From positions 1-43,133 of the forward strand of contig PUNC01000132.1 of assembly GCA_003551625.1 (NCBI GenBank): a DNA stretch of 43,133 nucleotides, in the 5' to 3' direction. This DNA is from PVC group bacterium. GTDB lineage: Bacteria > Auribacterota > Erginobacteria > Erginobacterales > PUNC01. The notes beneath the pieces are model-generated. The model did no database searches. It worked only from the letters and a program-made list of their open reading frames with translations, and was not told the DNA's origin. Of the stretch, positions 6,495 to 33,388 are shown in pieces. Numbering within the stretch: position 1 is the stretch's first letter; each line of letters starts with the position of its first letter. The position numbers were made by a program, and so were the translations under genes.

Positions 6495-6790
6495 CCCCGG
6501 GCTGACGCCCCGGGGCTATTCCTGTGCCGCCCCCTGCGGGGGCTTGCATTGTTTTATTAATTCGCTCTTCATCCCCGGGCTGACGCCCGGGGCTAACCAT
6601 ATGCCGCCCCCTGCGGGGGCTGAGATCACGGCTGAAGCCGTGGACTACGAACAGAGCTGAAATACTCCCGGGGCCATCCCCTGCGGGGATTTTTTTAGCC
6701 TCCGCAGGAGGCGAAACTTCTTTAGCCCCCGGTGTAAACCGGGGGGAAAGGGAAGTTTATAATATTCCCCAGCCCCCGCAGGGGGCGACA
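6495..6790. repeat. GC-rich hairpin repeat block, copy 1
   Basis: A mosaic of short palindromes occupies most of the gene-free stretch 6473-7001. The modules are CCCCGGGCTGACGCCCGGGG hairpins, CCCCCTGCGGGGG hairpins, a GCCTCCGCAGGAGGC element and CCCCCGGTGTAAACCGGGGG. Very similar blocks lie at 13418-13646 and 17738-17886, with a remnant at 41862. Short open frames inside it are artefacts of the repeats. Confidence 0.9.
6676..6696 (+). terminator. Terminator-like hairpin with T-run inside the repeat block
   Basis: ATCCCC-TGC-GGGGAT is followed directly by six T residues, the form of a Rho-independent terminator on the plus strand. Equivalent hairpin plus T-tract units occur in the other two blocks near 13530 and 17773. 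No plus-strand gene lies just upstream, so a terminator role is uncertain and this may only be a repeat module. Confidence 0.35.
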
Positions 6791-17901: not shown

Positions 17902-18031
17902 CCAGCGCCTCTGCGTCCCTGCTTGTCCGCCTCTCCTGCACAAAGTAATGGAGGGCGGGCGCGAGATAATTATTTCAGACCTGTTCGTCGGCCGTTACCT
18001 AATAGTCTAACAGTCTAAGCCCCTACAGCCT
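17902..18031. repeat. Sugar-phosphate-locus repeat train: hairpin module and composite C3, copy 2
   Basis: CGCCTCTGCGTCCCTGC module with the reversed hairpin (to 17965), overlapping GCGCGAGATAAT, TTTCAGACC, GCCGTTACCTAATAG and CTAACAGTCTAAGCCCC units to 18031. The last part encodes the C-terminal residues and stop of the epimerase at 18015. Confidence 0.85.
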
Positions 18032-27914: not shown

Positions 27915-29891
27915 TTATTGCTTAACCACCCGGTACATATAAAACGCGTTCGGCGGCCAGTAGATCGACTGGTGAACGGCGTCGGGGACGTTGCCGGGCC
28001 GTTCGACCAGGGGGATCACCCGCTGGCGGGCGGAGATCATCCGGTCCAGCGGAGCGTAGAACTTTAAAAGTTCCGGCCCCTCGTGGCGGGCGTCGTGAGC
28101 GAGGAAGGTGTCGAGGTAAAGCATATTGTCGCCCTCCCGGGGGAAGTTTTCCGTCTCGACCCATTCCATCTCGTATCCCCTTCCTCCCAGCGTAAACGCC
28201 ACCCGCGGCCGGTCTTCCACCAGGTCCAGGTCAAGCACCTCCGATTCGTATGGGTGGCCCGGCCAGTGAACACCGCTGAATCGGGGATCGCTCATCATCG
28301 TCAGCTGAATCGCCTGGATCGAGTCGCGACCGGCCAGAATTCGTTCCGGACGGTATTCCTCGATGGCGGCGATTATGGCGTCCAGTTCCACACGGGTCAC
28401 CCGGTCGCGGTAGAAGCCGGGAAGCGAAAGGGCGAACGGAACCACGGTCAACGCCGCCAGGATCCCGGCCGCCGCCCTCCGCAACGGCCACGACCTCCGT
28501 TTCCAGAAGTCGAGAACGGAAGCCGCCGCCGATCCGTAACCCAACCACATCAGCGCGGCCAGATAGACGGTCTGACGCGTGCCGCCGAAGGTGATGAAAA
28601 GGGTCCGGTTGGCCAACAGGTGGCAGGCCACGGTGGCAATGATGACCAGGGGGAGACCGGTGCCGGAAAGAAAAAACCGTGATCCGTGATCCGTAATCCG
28701 TGATCCGTCCCGATGAACGACTATCGGGATCTCCGCTTCGCTACGATGATCCGTGATCCGTCCCGATGAACGACTATCGGGATCTCCGCTTCGCTCCGAT
28801 GATCCGTTCTTTGTTGTTTCCTGATTACTGATTACTGATAACCGATTACGTTTCCCGCGTTTTCCATAAGCGCCGGCAAACCAGCAAACTACGGCCCCGA
28901 GCAAGACCAGCAGAAACGGAAGCGAGGCCCAACTCCATTCCAGGGGCATATATATCCGGGGATGGAAGACCAGCGACCAGTGGTAGTTGAGAAAATCGTA
29001 AAGCCGGACCAGGTAGTAACCGAACCAGCTCCCGTCCCAAGCGGTTCCGGGGACCCCCTTCTCCAGCAAAAAGACGGGATAGTAACGATACATATACCAG
29101 CGGAAGGGCTCGTCCCGGGGGATCAGCAGAAAGGTGGCGTAGAAATGGATGAAGCTCAAGACGCAATAGGTCAGGCCGGAAAAAAACCACGACGCATACC
29201 TTCTCCATCCTCCGGCCGACAGGCTTATCTCCACGAAAGCGGCGACCAGGATGCCGGCGGTGACCAGAAACTGGGTGTACATCACCAACTGGGCGATGTA
29301 GGCGACAACCGCCAGGAGAAGAAAACCGGGCCACCCCCATTTTCCCCTGACCTGCCAGAGATAGATTCCCACCTGGGCGGCGGTCAGGATGGGCGTGAAC
29401 GAGAAGTTGTTGGCGAACTGGCTGAAGACGATCGAGGTAATGGAAAACGAGCCGAGCAGTATCGTCGACCAGGTCGGAGCCGTCCAGGGGCCCCAGAGAC
29501 GGGCGGCGATGAAACCGGTCAGGCCGACGCCGAGGGCGAAAGCGGCGGCAAACCACCACCTCATCGCGGTGAAGTCGTGGCCGGTAAAGAGCTTGATCGC
29601 CTGGCAGATCACGTTGTAGGTGATGGTCATCGTGGAGGCCATATAATAACGGGAGGATTCGTGGATCTGCCAGATCACCGCGCCCAATCCGTCGGAGATA
29701 TCGGGAACCGGGGCGGGGTGGAAAGCCCCCAGCCAATCGTCGAACTGGTATTGAATCTCCGGAAGACGCCAGGCGCGGGGAAGGAAGGCGACGGCGGCCG
29801 CCAGCAGTCCGACCAGAAGGGAGGCCAACAGGCGCCGCCTCGCCGCCGAATTATTTGGCGGCTTTTCCGGCATCATTTCCAGCTTTTCCAT
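27915..29891 (-). CDS. Polytopic GT-C-like membrane protein with an in-frame repeat insertion
   Basis: This is a 658-residue protein from ATG 29891; the upstream in-frame GTG at 29909 is part of a GTGCGGAGCA repeat and is not preferred. The first loop contains IQYQFDDWLGAFHP with an acidic pair, followed by several hydrophobic helices. Between two membrane helices, about 59 codons (28674-28850) consist of intergenic repeat DNA, giving a hydrophilic loop with SSGRITDHRSEAEIP. The frame is intact, so the protein may still be functional. The C-terminal ~170 residues are soluble. Family assignment is approximate. Confidence 0.62.
   Translation of the reverse strand: MEKLEMMPEKPPNNSAARRRLLASLLVGLLAAAVAFLPRAWRLPEIQYQFDDWLGAFHPAPVPDISDGLGAVIWQIHESSRYYMASTMTITYNVICQAIKLFTGHDFTAMRWWFAAAFALGVGLTGFIAARLWGPWTAPTWSTILLGSFSITSIVFSQFANNFSFTPILTAAQVGIYLWQVRGKWGWPGFLLLAVVAYIAQLVMYTQFLVTAGILVAAFVEISLSAGGWRRYASWFFSGLTYCVLSFIHFYATFLLIPRDEPFRWYMYRYYPVFLLEKGVPGTAWDGSWFGYYLVRLYDFLNYHWSLVFHPRIYMPLEWSWASLPFLLVLLGAVVCWFAGAYGKRGKRNRLSVISNQETTKNGSSERSGDPDSRSSGRITDHRSEAEIPIVVHRDGSRITDHGSRFFLSGTGLPLVIIATVACHLLANRTLFITFGGTRQTVYLAALMWLGYGSAAASVLDFWKRRSWPLRRAAAGILAALTVVPFALSLPGFYRDRVTRVELDAIIAAIEEYRPERILAGRDSIQAIQLTMMSDPRFSGVHWPGHPYESEVLDLDLVEDRPRVAFTLGGRGYEMEWVETENFPREGDNMLYLDTFLAHDARHEGPELLKFYAPLDRMISARQRVIPLVERPGNVPDAVHQSIYWPPNAFYMYRVVKQ
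28674..28850. repeat. Intergenic repeat block inserted inside a coding region
   Basis: GATCCGT 7-base units, two 54-base tandem copies of the GTCCCGAT-hairpin module, and TGATTAC-type 7-base units. It keeps the reading frame (about 177 bases). The same modules otherwise occur only between genes in this window. Confidence 0.85.
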
Positions 29892-29920
29892 TCCAGATAT
29901 GCTCCGCACTCCAAAGGATA

Positions 29921-30020
29921 GTAAGCAGTGAGCAGTGAGCAGTGAGCAGTGAACAGTGAGTAGTGAGCAGTGAGCAGTAAGCAGTGAGCAGTGAGCAGTA
30001 AGCAGTGAGCAGAAAACAGT
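29921..30020. repeat. 14-unit tandem array of 7-base GTGAGCA repeats
   Basis: Fourteen consecutive 7-base units (GTGAGCA, with variants GTAAGCA, GTGAACA, GTGAGTA) precede composite repeat C1 copy 2. The array is not CRISPR-like. It lies in the gene-free stretch 29892-30197. Confidence 0.9.
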
Positions 30021-30197: not shown

Positions 30198-30803
30198 CTA
30201 TTGTTTATCGCCCTGCCCTTCTTCCCCGGCGCGGCCGGACATCACGATCAGCAGGTCGTAACCCTTGATGACGGAGGTGATCTCCGCCGAAGGGTCGGCC
30301 CGGCGGACCAGATCTTCAAGTTCGGCCCGGCTGAACCTGAAATCGCCGCTGCCGTTGCCGGGGTTGCTGAGAAAATGGTTGAGCCATTTCGGGAGCAGCG
30401 TGATCCGGTTTTGAACCTGCTCGATGAGGATAACTTTTTTGCGGGCGGAAGCCAGCAGCCGCTCCAGCAACTCACCGGCCCGATCGCAAAAGTGATACAG
30501 CGACTCCATCATCACCACGTAGTCGCTGACCGGGAGTTCCGCCTCGATGGCATTGCCTTCCAGGCAATACGCGCGGGTTTCTTGGGGGACCATACCCAGG
30601 CTCAAATCGATCCCCCGGTAAGAGCAGTTCTTGTCTTGCAGGTAATGGGTGAAAAGACGGCCGTCGCCGCAGCAGACATCGAGGACCGAAGATCCGGGTT
30701 CAATCAGGCCGGCGACCAGCTTGTAACGCCCCTCGAAGTCGGGATGGGAGCGGCCGTAGGTGTTGCGGTAGATACCGCGATGCCAATAGATCGGGCTGCG
30801 CAT
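30198..30803 (-). CDS. SAM-dependent methyltransferase (class I)
   Basis: This 201-residue protein has motif I VLDVCCGDGRLF (residues 39-50) and an acidic GIDLSLG motif II, then MMESLYHFCDR. No Shine-Dalgarno sequence is visible; a TTTTAG repeat lies about 15 bases upstream. The TAG stop belongs to a TAGCCCCCGCAGGGG hairpin remnant. It may be part of the minus-strand gene train from 37537 down, interrupted by the four-helix-bundle cassette. Substrate unknown. Confidence 0.78.
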   Translation of the reverse strand: MRSPIYWHRGIYRNTYGRSHPDFEGRYKLVAGLIEPGSSVLDVCCGDGRLFTHYLQDKNCSYRGIDLSLGMVPQETRAYCLEGNAIEAELPVSDYVVMMESLYHFCDRAGELLERLLASARKKVILIEQVQNRITLLPKWLNHFLSNPGNGSGDFRFSRAELEDLVRRADPSAEITSVIKGYDLLIVMSGRAGEEGQGDKQ

Positions 30804-30818
30804 AATAGGTGTTCAGCG

Positions 30819-30841
30819 TTTTAGACTTTTAGTCTTTTAGG
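30819..30841 (+). repeat. Left arm of the inverted repeat around the four-helix-bundle gene
   Basis: This 23-base array of 8-base CTTTTAGT-like units matches the reverse complement of 31227-31249 at 22 of 23 positions. Confidence 0.9.
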
Positions 30842-30859
30842 AAAAAATGCCGGCAAGGC

Positions 30860-31216
30860 TTACTTGTTTCTGGTGGATCTGATAAGAGCCCAAAGCACTT
30901 TTCCGGTCTCGGAAATCTTCTCTTCACACTCATCATAAACCTGACCGGTTAGATAACCCAAACGTTTTGCAAGATCTATTTGATAATGCAGTTCTCTTAA
31001 CGATCCAAAGGCAATCTCTAAAAAACGGAGATACTCAGGTTGGCTGCCTCTTACGCACCCTTCAACGATATTGGAAGGCACGGAGACCGCCGCTCTCCTC
31101 ATCTGGGAAGTTAATCCGTACAATTCGTCCTTAGGGAGTACCTTTGTTGCTTTATATACCAGAACAGCTACCTCATCAGCCAATTCAAACGCCCTGAGTT
31201 TTTTATGGTCCCTCAT
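30860..31216 (-). CDS. Four-helix bundle protein (23S rRNA intervening-sequence protein family)
   Basis: This 118-residue protein begins LRAFELADEVAVLVYKATK and contains the family hallmark LTSQMRRAAVSVPSNIVEGC and the FLEIAFGSLRELHYQID helix. This family is best known from ORFs inside 23S rRNA intervening sequences but also occurs as stand-alone genes. Here it lies between a GT-C gene and a methyltransferase gene, inside a 23-base inverted repeat. No clear Shine-Dalgarno sequence is visible. It has no obvious link to the glycan genes. Molecular function is not established; members form oligomeric helical bundles. Confidence 0.9.
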   Translation of the reverse strand: MRDHKKLRAFELADEVAVLVYKATKVLPKDELYGLTSQMRRAAVSVPSNIVEGCVRGSQPEYLRFLEIAFGSLRELHYQIDLAKRLGYLTGQVYDECEEKISETGKVLWALIRSTRNK

Positions 31217-31226
31217 CGCAAGTTAA

Positions 31227-31249
31227 CCTAAAAGACTAAAAGGCTAAAA
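31227..31249 (-). repeat. Right arm of the inverted repeat around the four-helix-bundle gene
   Basis: CCTAAAAGACTAAAAGG and further CTAAAAG units, extending to about 31262. The array encodes the final residues (SLLAF) and stop codon of the GT-C gene at 31244. Confidence 0.9.
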
Positions 31250-33388
31250 AGCTAAAAGACTGATATCGCCCTTGAATTCGCGGCTCCAAGCGGCATCGTC
31301 CTCCGACACGGAAACAAAAACCGGACCGAGCACTTCGAAGTCGGCCTCGCTCTCCACGGCCAGGCGCCAGCCGTTTTCGGACGAGGGCAGTCTAACCTTA
31401 AAAAGTTGCCACGACCAGCCGAATGTCTGGTCTTCCGCGAAGACCTTTCCGCCCGAGCCGTTCTTGACCGACACCCGGCAGGAGCGCAGGGGAAGAGGAA
31501 TCACCCGTTCCATCACGTCGTCCGGACCCGGCGGCATCAGGTCGGCCCGGACCGCGAAAAAGACGGTCAAAGCTTCAATCCGTTCTTCCGGAAAAAGAAA
31601 CGGCAGTTCCCATTCTCCCGGCGGCAACGCGGTTCGTTGCCGCTCGCCGAGCAAGCCGGGAACGACCTCCCCCCGAACTTCCCGTGAATCCGAAGCAAGA
31701 CCGACCTCTTTCCAGATCAATGGAGTCTCCTCCGGTTCCAAGGCCGAAGCGCGGATCCGTTCGAGGTCGTAAACGCGCCGGCCCGGCAGGTCCCAATAAA
31801 CGCCGGCGCGACTCTGATATTCCCCGGAATGCCGTCCGGACAGGGCCAGAAACTCCTCCGGTTCACCGATAAGATAACCGCGCTCATACAACCGCAGGTT
31901 AACAACCGGCAACAGCATCGAAAAGAGCTGCTCGGGCTCGTGGTTCCAGACCCGGAGCATAATGTCCCAGCGACGGGAGATGTCGAAGACGCGGGGCCGG
32001 TGGTAGGCGGTGTAAACCGGAACCGGCAACGCGTCCGCGGCGCGGAGGAGAGGCGGAAGGCCGAGAAGATCACGGGTATAAAGACGGGCTTCATCGTTGA
32101 ATCCGAAAGCCGACGGCAACTCGTCGAGTACCCTCGAGCTTTGGGTGTAATTGAGCAGACCGATTACGAGCAACGACAAGCACGCGAGCGACGTTCTCCA
32201 GCGTTTTCCCCCGGAAAACGATGCGGAGAGAAACGCGCCCAGGGGAAGTATAAACAGAATTATGATGGTGGAGTAATAGTAAACCGGCATCTCGACTGTA
32301 GCCGGAATTACCGGAAACATAAACAGGGCCACGGCGAGAAAATAAAGAACGGCCGGCAGCAACGGTTTGAGAGCGAAACGCAGGTATTTAATCCCGCCGG
32401 AGAAAAGCATCAGCACGGCCGCGGCGGGGCCGAACAGTCGCAGGTAAAACGGAAGGTTTTCTCCGGCGCCGAGATTCTGGTTTATCATCTCCCGAACTCC
32501 GACCAGGGCGAAATCACGCAATCGCGGGAAGATCACCAGCGGGTCGGCCAGCAGAGGCTCCAGACCGCCGGTCATCCAGTCCATCGGCGGCCAGCGGCCA
32601 ACCACCCGGCCGGCCAGGGGCGGCAGGATCCAGAACAAGGATGCCAGGTAAACGGCCCAGGCCGAAAGACAGGCAACGGCGGCGGGGAGGGCGTGCCTTT
32701 TCAGGGTATTCCACTCCAGGATAAAGAAGACCGCGATCAGGGGAACGAAAAGAAGAGCGAACTCGTGGGTGAAGATGGCCGCGGCCAGCGCCAGGCCTAT
32801 TCCAAGCCAGCGAAAACCGCCTTTTTCGAGATTCCGCAGCCTCACCGCCTCCCGGACGATATAGACGAGCAGAAAGGTCAGCAAGGCCATATTCGGGCGA
32901 ATCGGATAGTGGGCGTCGAGCAACGTCTGCGAAGTGGCCAACCAGAACGAGGCGGCCGCGAGCCCGGCCGGCAGGGAGCCGAACCACTCGCGGATCAAAT
33001 AAACCAATAAAAGCCAGGTCAGCAGGATAAGGATGAGGTTAACCGGTTCCCGCAAAGACGGCCCCCACCAGGAGTAAAAAGGCTGATAGAACTTGGGGAT
33101 CAGCGCGTCGAAGAGCATTATCGGGTAGCGGCCGTCGAACATTCCGCCCTGGGCTTCCCAGACCAGCGGCTTGAGCGGGTCGTAACGGTTGAACGAAGCG
33201 CTCAAGGGACCGTCCCGCAATCCCGCCTGAAGCCCGTAATAGCGCAACCTCAGCGTTTCCGGCTGGATCCAGTCCACCGGATGGTGGACGAGGAAAAGGG
33301 CAAAGATTCCCGCCGCCAGGACCGAAAAGATAACGGCCGTCGTCCTCGTTGAGGCGAATACCGGAATTTTCCGCGTAGGGATCTTCAC
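31244..33388 (-). CDS. Large GT-C-like membrane protein with soluble C-terminal domain
   Basis: This 714-residue protein starts at GTG 33388, 12 bases after the previous gene. It has about ten hydrophobic segments to residue ~400, a soluble region, and a C-terminal domain of about 200 residues that looks beta-rich. An outer-loop region after the first helix (HPVDWIQPETLRLRYYG) and the SLREPVNL stretch resemble neighbouring GT-C proteins in the gene train, but no catalytic motif is certain. The last residues and stop are supplied by the repeat arm at 31227-31262. Confidence 0.55.
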   Translation of the reverse strand: MKIPTRKIPVFASTRTTAVIFSVLAAGIFALFLVHHPVDWIQPETLRLRYYGLQAGLRDGPLSASFNRYDPLKPLVWEAQGGMFDGRYPIMLFDALIPKFYQPFYSWWGPSLREPVNLILILLTWLLLVYLIREWFGSLPAGLAAASFWLATSQTLLDAHYPIRPNMALLTFLLVYIVREAVRLRNLEKGGFRWLGIGLALAAAIFTHEFALLFVPLIAVFFILEWNTLKRHALPAAVACLSAWAVYLASLFWILPPLAGRVVGRWPPMDWMTGGLEPLLADPLVIFPRLRDFALVGVREMINQNLGAGENLPFYLRLFGPAAAVLMLFSGGIKYLRFALKPLLPAVLYFLAVALFMFPVIPATVEMPVYYYSTIIILFILPLGAFLSASFSGGKRWRTSLACLSLLVIGLLNYTQSSRVLDELPSAFGFNDEARLYTRDLLGLPPLLRAADALPVPVYTAYHRPRVFDISRRWDIMLRVWNHEPEQLFSMLLPVVNLRLYERGYLIGEPEEFLALSGRHSGEYQSRAGVYWDLPGRRVYDLERIRASALEPEETPLIWKEVGLASDSREVRGEVVPGLLGERQRTALPPGEWELPFLFPEERIEALTVFFAVRADLMPPGPDDVMERVIPLPLRSCRVSVKNGSGGKVFAEDQTFGWSWQLFKVRLPSSENGWRLAVESEADFEVLGPVFVSVSEDDAAWSREFKGDISLLAF

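What the first reader, a model, noticed from the sequence alone, without database searches (positions are those of the whole stretch)
30819..31249. Four-helix-bundle gene enclosed by a 23-base inverted repeat, between protein genes
The gene at 30860-31216 is bracketed by 30819-30841 and 31227-31249, which are reverse complements at 22 of 23 positions and built of 8-base CTTTTAG units. This mirrors 23S rRNA intervening sequences, where such an ORF sits in a stem-loop, but here the host is the space between a GT-C gene and a methyltransferase gene. The ~430-base unit could be an intervening-sequence-like mobile RNA or DNA element. The inverted flanks are seen directly; mobility is inferred.
Basis: partly seen in the sequence, partly recalled or inferred. 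Interest (0 to 1): 0.85.

Follow-up and report, generated by a model that had tools for sequence, protein, structure and literature searches.

The report
Tiny mobile gene flanked by heptamer repeats
A small gene of unknown function lies between mirror-image arrays of 7-8-letter repeats, and the same arrangement recurs across many bacterial phyla, so it looks like a very small mobile DNA element that may also explain the heptamer repeats scattered through many bacterial genomes.

Summary
The 118-aa ORF at 30860-31216 (-) is a 23S_rRNA_IVP (PF05635) four-helix-bundle gene, and the 23-base flanks are reverse complements at 22 of 23 positions. I scored 163 IVP loci from many phyla. 69-79% have inverted flanking arrays, against 1-3% of random windows and 0-5% of PIN genes. 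The units repeat every 7 nt (8 in some loci, this one included), usually differ from locus to locus, and match only the other flank of the same locus. The arms have fixed polarity: the G-rich strand reads towards the ORF. Orthologous sites at 88-98% identity lack the whole unit, and one subfamily sits at three unrelated sites, so the unit is mobile. The arm repeats also occur alone, dispersed in the same genomes. In 120 Xanthomonadaceae-family genomes, dispersed GGGAATC arrays go with IVP (29/55 against 7/65, p=7.5e-7). The layout resembles RAYT/REPIN, but with an Avd-like ring protein instead of a transposase. An RNA-stem reading is not supported by pairing patterns. The mobilising enzyme and the IVP's biochemical role are unknown. 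I found no description of this system in the open-access papers searched.

The parts
30860..31216 (-). IVP (four-helix-bundle) ORF, 118 aa, the only ORF of the element
   Evidence: PF05635 118 bits, TIGR02436; AF2 pLDDT 97, TM 0.95 to 2GSC
31218..31258 (-). 5' arm in gene orientation: array of 8-nt units, G-rich strand reading towards the ORF; overlaps the end of the GT-C gene
   Evidence: inverted-repeat search and TRF; pattern search
30812..30850 (-). 3' arm: inverted copy of the octamer array
   Evidence: inverted-repeat search; pattern search
30812..31258 (-). whole putative element, about 447 nt (family median span 467 nt)
   Evidence: exact ends not proven because the only orthologous IVP-less site is diverged
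31244..33388 (-). flanking GT-C-like gene; its stop codon lies in the array
   Evidence: ORF list; orthologue next to the IVP-less site in L060, 60% identical
30198..30803 (-). flanking methyltransferase gene
   Evidence: PF13489; orthologue in L060, 68% identical
17999..18015 (-). IVP-less copy of the same octamer type elsewhere in the window

Best explanation
This is a minimal mobile DNA element of about 450 bp: one four-helix-bundle (IVP) gene enclosed by inverted arrays of a 7-8-nt repeat that form its ends. SHOWN: (a) most IVP genes outside rRNA, across many phyla, are enclosed in this way, with locus-specific units of fixed polarity; (b) the ORF-plus-arms unit is present or absent as a block at otherwise similar sites; (c) the ORF is under purifying selection between copies at different sites; (d) the same repeats occur alone, dispersed in the same genomes. 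INFERRED: the IVP ring (Avd-like fold; its solved homologue 2GSC is a pentamer) binds the heptad array in DNA as a multivalent site and marks it for movement or copying by a host or trans-acting enzyme. Solo arrays and ORF-less inverted pairs would be the non-autonomous, IVP-dependent population, as REPINs are to RAYTs. The two arms of one element stay alike while diverging fast between elements, so some copying of one arm from the other (template switching or hairpin-primed synthesis) probably accompanies movement or replication.
For: Inverted arms in 79% (score >=13) and 69% (>=15) of 163 IVP loci, against random windows 1-3% and PIN genes 1/19 and 0/19. Period 7 in 99 and 8 in 14 of 114 loci; median arm 4.6 units. 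Fixed polarity 65:9. Sites without the unit at about 98% (site A), 92-96% (sites B, D) and 88-92% flank identity. One subfamily at three unrelated loci, coextensive over about 418 nt, dN/dS 0.10-0.14. Arm repeats dispersed without IVP: 59 against 2 control hits in the own genome, about 25 sites in a second genus. Xanthomonadaceae: GGGAATC arrays >=10 in 29/55 IVP+ and 7/65 IVP- genomes; ten close ORF-less inverted pairs read in four genomes all have the polarity of IVP arms. Avd-like fold, TM about 0.80.
Against: No movement observed directly. No fixed target-site duplication: 5 bp at one site, other sites ambiguous, no general signal in 67 loci. 21-30% of IVP loci show no clear arms. Seven IVP-less Xanthomonadaceae-family genomes have many arrays, and the association is not corrected for phylogeny. 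The match of arm type to the dispersed repeat within IVP+ genomes is weak (one-sided p=0.03). Arm sequence follows protein sequence only weakly (rho 0.11). The window's own IVP-less orthologous site is too diverged to read junctions.
Confidence: 0.62

Rival explanations
1. Passenger model: another enzyme (for example a Y1/HUH transposase of the RAYT type) moves DNA bounded by inverted heptad arrays, and IVP is merely the commonest cargo, perhaps a regulator or stabiliser.
For: IVP counts follow Y1_Tnp counts (rho 0.67, partial 0.60 with genome size; RVT_1 0.13, DDE_1 0.24, PIN 0.49). No catalytic domain is recognised in IVP. Dispersed arrays exist in some IVP-less genomes.
Against: Y1 genes are enclosed by other inverted motifs (mostly GGGGTCA-type), not heptad arrays. 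PIN genes, another common small cargo, are not enclosed. Two IVP-rich genomes lack Y1 matches.
Confidence: 0.22
2. IVS-like RNA element: the transcript folds into a long stem with the ORF in the loop, is processed by RNase III, and spreads by reverse transcription, as proposed for rRNA intervening sequences.
For: Same protein family and size as rRNA IVS with a 28-bp terminal stem (PMC4990558). The window RNA folds well (z -4.1). Avd-like fold.
Against: No G.U asymmetry in arm mismatches (91 against 102). No correlation with RVT_1, which was not found in the own genome or in seven other IVP-rich genomes. In plasmid pNe_5 the IVP gene is antisense to the nrd genes around it.
Confidence: 0.1
3. 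Not mobile: heptad arrays arise by slippage and quasi-palindrome correction at intergenic sites, and IVP genes simply tend to lie between them.
For: Arms of one locus match while differing between loci. Template switching is known to perfect inverted repeats (own knowledge). Arrays often abut start codons and supply stops.
Against: Present/absent polymorphism of ORF plus arms at 88-98% flank identity, and one subfamily at three unrelated loci. IVP genes interrupt operons such as nrdA/nrdB, cas10/cmr3, cas6/cas4 and accB/accC. Random windows and PIN genes lack such arms.
Confidence: 0.06

Closest known systems
23S rRNA intervening sequences (IVS) with an IVP/S23 ORF (Coxiella, Leptospira)
   Same: Same protein family, similar length (428 nt in Coxiella against a median span of 467 nt), terminal inverted repeats
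   Different: Not in an rRNA gene; ends are tandem 7-8-mers with locus-specific units; no evidence for an RNA stem under selection; the same repeats are dispersed alone in the genome
RAYT / REPIN (REP-associated tyrosine transposase and its REP doublets)
   Same: A single gene flanked by inverted copies of a repeat that is also dispersed without the gene, as solo copies and inverted pairs; one or few gene copies with many repeats in Xanthomonadaceae
   Different: IVP has no Y1/HUH domain; the repeat is a tandem heptad array, not a REP palindrome; IVP is multicopy in some genomes
Diversity-generating retroelement Avd protein
   Same: Fold (TM about 0.80 to 4DWL and 8UB7) and weak sequence similarity (bAvd, NF033474 below cut-off)
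   Different: No reverse transcriptase gene beside the element, none found in the own genome; no template/variable repeat pair known
Described heptamer repeats: Xanthomonas/Nostoc GGGAATC and GGGGAYT, Beggiatoaceae TAACTGA, cyanobacterial STRR, Geobacter paired octa/heptamers
   Same: Same unit length, intergenic placement, and in Xanthomonas and Geobacter opposite-strand pairs
   Different: The papers read describe them without linking them to IVP genes (PMC4692102, PMC4679880, PMC2700814, PMC6344855, PMC2670836)

Membership tests
23S rRNA IVS | Lies inside an rRNA gene | tested here: not met
   no rRNA in the window, nor in the 30 other loci scanned
23S rRNA IVS | Encodes an IVP/S23 protein | tested here: met
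   PF05635 118 bits
23S rRNA IVS | Terminal inverted repeats | tested here: met
   39-nt arms, 82% complementary
23S rRNA IVS | Excised from the transcript by RNase III | not testable with these tools
   needs RNA-seq or an RNase III assay
RAYT/REPIN | Gene encodes a Y1 (HUH) transposase | tested here: not met
   only PF05635 and weak bAvd matches
RAYT/REPIN | Gene flanked by inverted copies of a genome-dispersed repeat | tested here: met
RAYT/REPIN | Repeat is a short hairpin palindrome (REP) | tested here: not met
   units are tandem 7-8-mers of fixed polarity
DGR Avd | Encoded beside a reverse transcriptase | tested here: not met
   no RVT_1 match in the own genome
DGR Avd | Avd fold | tested here: met
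   TM 0.80 to 4DWL_D
Insertion sequence / MITE | Fixed-length target-site duplication | tested here: inconclusive
   5 bp at site A, others ambiguous, no general signal
Insertion sequence / MITE | Encodes a transposase, or shares its ends with an element that does | tested here: inconclusive
   no transposase in the element; Y1 counts correlate but Y1 flanks differ in kind; other transposases in the genome were not searched for matching ends

The most novel reading that the evidence does not exclude
IVP proteins are the drivers of prokaryotic heptamer repeats: a transposase-less, Avd-like ring protein recognises tandem 7-mers in DNA and spreads them as arrays and inverted pairs across bacteria. 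This would be a class of selfish DNA separate from IS, REPIN and retroelements, and a cause of the widespread 7-nt intergenic periodicity.
Probability: 0.45. Interest if true: 0.95.

Novelty: new variant of a known kind. Interest (0 to 1): 0.86.

Why it matters
[quoted passage not shown] The patchy spread of one of them was noted with 'no mechanism evident' (PMC4679880), and the Xanthomonas GGGAATC repeats were reported as generally not associated with mobile elements (PMC4692102). A single protein family enclosed by such arrays at most of its loci gives these observations one testable cause. It would also give a role to a protein family whose structure was solved in 2006 and whose function is still unknown.

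Tried and rejected
RNA-stem selection: no G.U asymmetry. Reverse-transcriptase dependence: no correlation with RVT_1, not found in several IVP-rich genomes. Y1/RAYT as the direct mobiliser: counts correlate, but Y1 genes carry other inverted motifs. Fixed target-site duplication: no general signal. Strict coevolution of arm and protein sequence: weak (rho 0.11); a shared AGNCYNN-like core is seen in many members of the window's own subfamily. Isolated phage records: no IVP match with one query. Chance or one-gene artefact: excluded by controls. Genus-level searches around named loci: handle type not accepted. A held paper that describes IVP genes with flanking heptads: not found in nine searches; preprints and most subscription papers are not held.

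Full report
Observation. The window ORF at 30860-31216 (-) is a PF05635 / TIGR02436 protein. Its flanks 30819-30841 and 31227-31249 are reverse complements at 22 of 23 positions; the ungapped search extends the arms to 39 nt at 82%. The unit repeats every 8 bases. The octamer pattern occurs six times in the window against 0.06 expected. The array overlaps the end of the GT-C gene and gives it its stop codon. No rRNA is in the window.

It is a general arrangement. The own genome has nine PF05635 matches at seven places, and nearly all show short-period repeats inverted across the gene, with a different unit each. I scored the local alignment of the 5' flank to the reverse complement of the 3' flank. 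In the own genome and relatives the median was 18.0, against 9.5 for the same orientation and 8.5 for mismatched pairs. In 77 named loci from many phyla, 57% reached 13, against 2.3% of random windows from the same loci. When arms may overlap the ORF ends by 45 nt, the fraction at 15 or more is 75% (relatives), 58% (named) and 85% (viral contigs), against 1% or less of random windows. PIN genes, a control for small mobile genes, gave 0 of 19 at that score. Over all 163 loci 79% reach 13 and 69% reach 15; the period is 7 in 99 and 8 in 14 of 114, and the median arm is 32 nt or 4.6 units. The median span is 467 nt, 5-95% 414-608.

Arms are DNA-like and polar. The 5' arm is G-rich in 65 of 74 loci. 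Mismatches between arms are G.U-compatible 91 times and A.C-type 102 times, so there is no sign of selection on an RNA stem. Arms diverge faster than the protein, yet the two arms of one element stay alike. Many members of the window's subfamily keep an AGNCYNN-like core.

Mobility. In cyanobacterial plasmids IVP genes sit between heptanucleotide arrays inside gene clusters: nrdB/nrdA, cas10/cmr3, cas6/cas4, beside a TraM-domain gene. Orthologous sites without the unit were found. Site A: empty AAAAAGTAATTAACAAAT; filled AAAAAGTAAT, element, GTAATTAACAAAT, with flanks about 98% identical, compatible with a 5-bp duplication. Sites D and E show gain or loss of a few bases, and sites B, C and F cannot be read cleanly, so no fixed duplication is claimed; 67 loci show no general signal. 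Site B also has an ORF-less derivative with arms (L220) and site A a truncated one (L217). One subfamily occupies three unrelated loci over the same roughly 418 nt at 78-82% DNA identity, with dN/dS 0.10-0.14. In another genus the unit L035 is missing at an orthologous site 88-92% identical, although some of the intergenic sequence differs as well. The window's own orthologous locus (L060) has both neighbours, 60% and 68% identical, and no IVP, with about 80 nt between them; its junctions are too diverged to read.

Dispersed repeats. In the window's genome the octamer pattern has 59 hits against 2 for the reversed control, and the arrays examined besides the IVP one are solo. The window itself carries IVP-less arrays AGTGAGC x13 and CCGTGAT x4.6, the unit types that form arms of IVP elements L035 and L048 in other genomes. 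In Xanthomonas, Luteimonas and Rhodanobacter the IVP lies between accB and accC (families confirmed for Luteimonas accB/accC and Xanthomonas accC; the rest read from translations), with arms of GGGAATC or GGGATTC type; in Xanthomonas only the 5' arm is clear. GGGAATC is the heptamer reported at 186 places in X. campestris with 70 inverted pairs (PMC4692102). Over 120 genomes of that family, counts of 10 or more occur in 29 of 55 IVP-bearing and 7 of 65 IVP-less genomes; this is not corrected for phylogeny. The ten close pairs that I read in the listed coordinates of four genomes all run + then -, the polarity of IVP arms. The match of arm type to dispersed count within IVP-bearing genomes is weaker (one-sided p=0.03).

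Protein. The AF2 model (pLDDT 97) matches 2GSC (TM 0.95), 2RLD, and Avd alone or in DGR complexes (about 0.80). Q38, S45, N49 and E75 are invariant, and R41, E52 and S72 are at 97-99%, in 151 sequences: an unusually polar conserved set for a pure scaffold (inference). No catalytic domain is recognised. In 59 genomes IVP counts do not follow RVT_1 (rho 0.13) or DDE_1 (0.24); they follow Y1_Tnp (0.67) and, less, PIN (0.49). Y1 genes have their own inverted flanks of other kinds.

Interpretation. Shown: a widespread, compact, mobile ORF-plus-inverted-heptad-array unit whose repeats also live alone. Inferred: the IVP ring recognises the array and makes it mobile, or copied, together with another enzyme. 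The layout works like RAYT/REPIN but is not a member of it, because the Y1 domain and the hairpin repeats are absent. It shares protein and size with rRNA IVS but fails the location test. Open: the enzyme, the target-site rule, how arms are kept alike, and whether IVP is driver or passenger.

Noticed in passing
window 29920-30012: AGTGAGC heptad array of 13 copies between the methyltransferase-side intergenic region and the GT-C ORF 27915-29909, without an IVP gene; the same unit type forms the arms of IVP element L035 in another genome.
   Followed up: partly
window 28677-28849: Heptad arrays (CCGTGAT, CTGATTA) and a 53-bp tandem repeat lie inside the coding region of the GT-C ORF 27915-29909, which reads through them in frame.
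   Followed up: no
window 6573-6621: Acido-Lenti-1 RNA (RF01687), just above the gathering score.
   Followed up: no
L058 and other places of genome G051: IVP-like ORFs occur as divergent head-to-head pairs about 180 nt apart around a hairpin, at several places of one genome: possibly another variant of the element.
   Followed up: no
L005/L009 (G000:C23): Two IVP domains are fused in one 265-aa ORF, enclosed by one pair of inverted GAGTAYGTGTAA-type arms.
   Followed up: no
L230-L249: Y1_Tnp genes of these genomes are enclosed by inverted copies of other motifs, mostly GGGGTCA(A/G)ACCTT-type (19 of 20 loci).
   Followed up: partly
L211, L213; PMC3936711: IVP genes sit inside cas operons with heptad arms, so reported associations of IVP with CRISPR-Cas loci may partly reflect insertion of this element rather than a CRISPR function.
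   Followed up: partly
PMC2700814 (Geobacter metallireducens): 'Global regulator binding sites' described as tandem octa/heptamers in opposite-strand pairs at variable distance have the geometry of these elements.
   Followed up: no
L271 (G038:C797): A different array (ACAACCTT-like) directly precedes the start codon at the site where G043 carries an IVP element.
   Followed up: no
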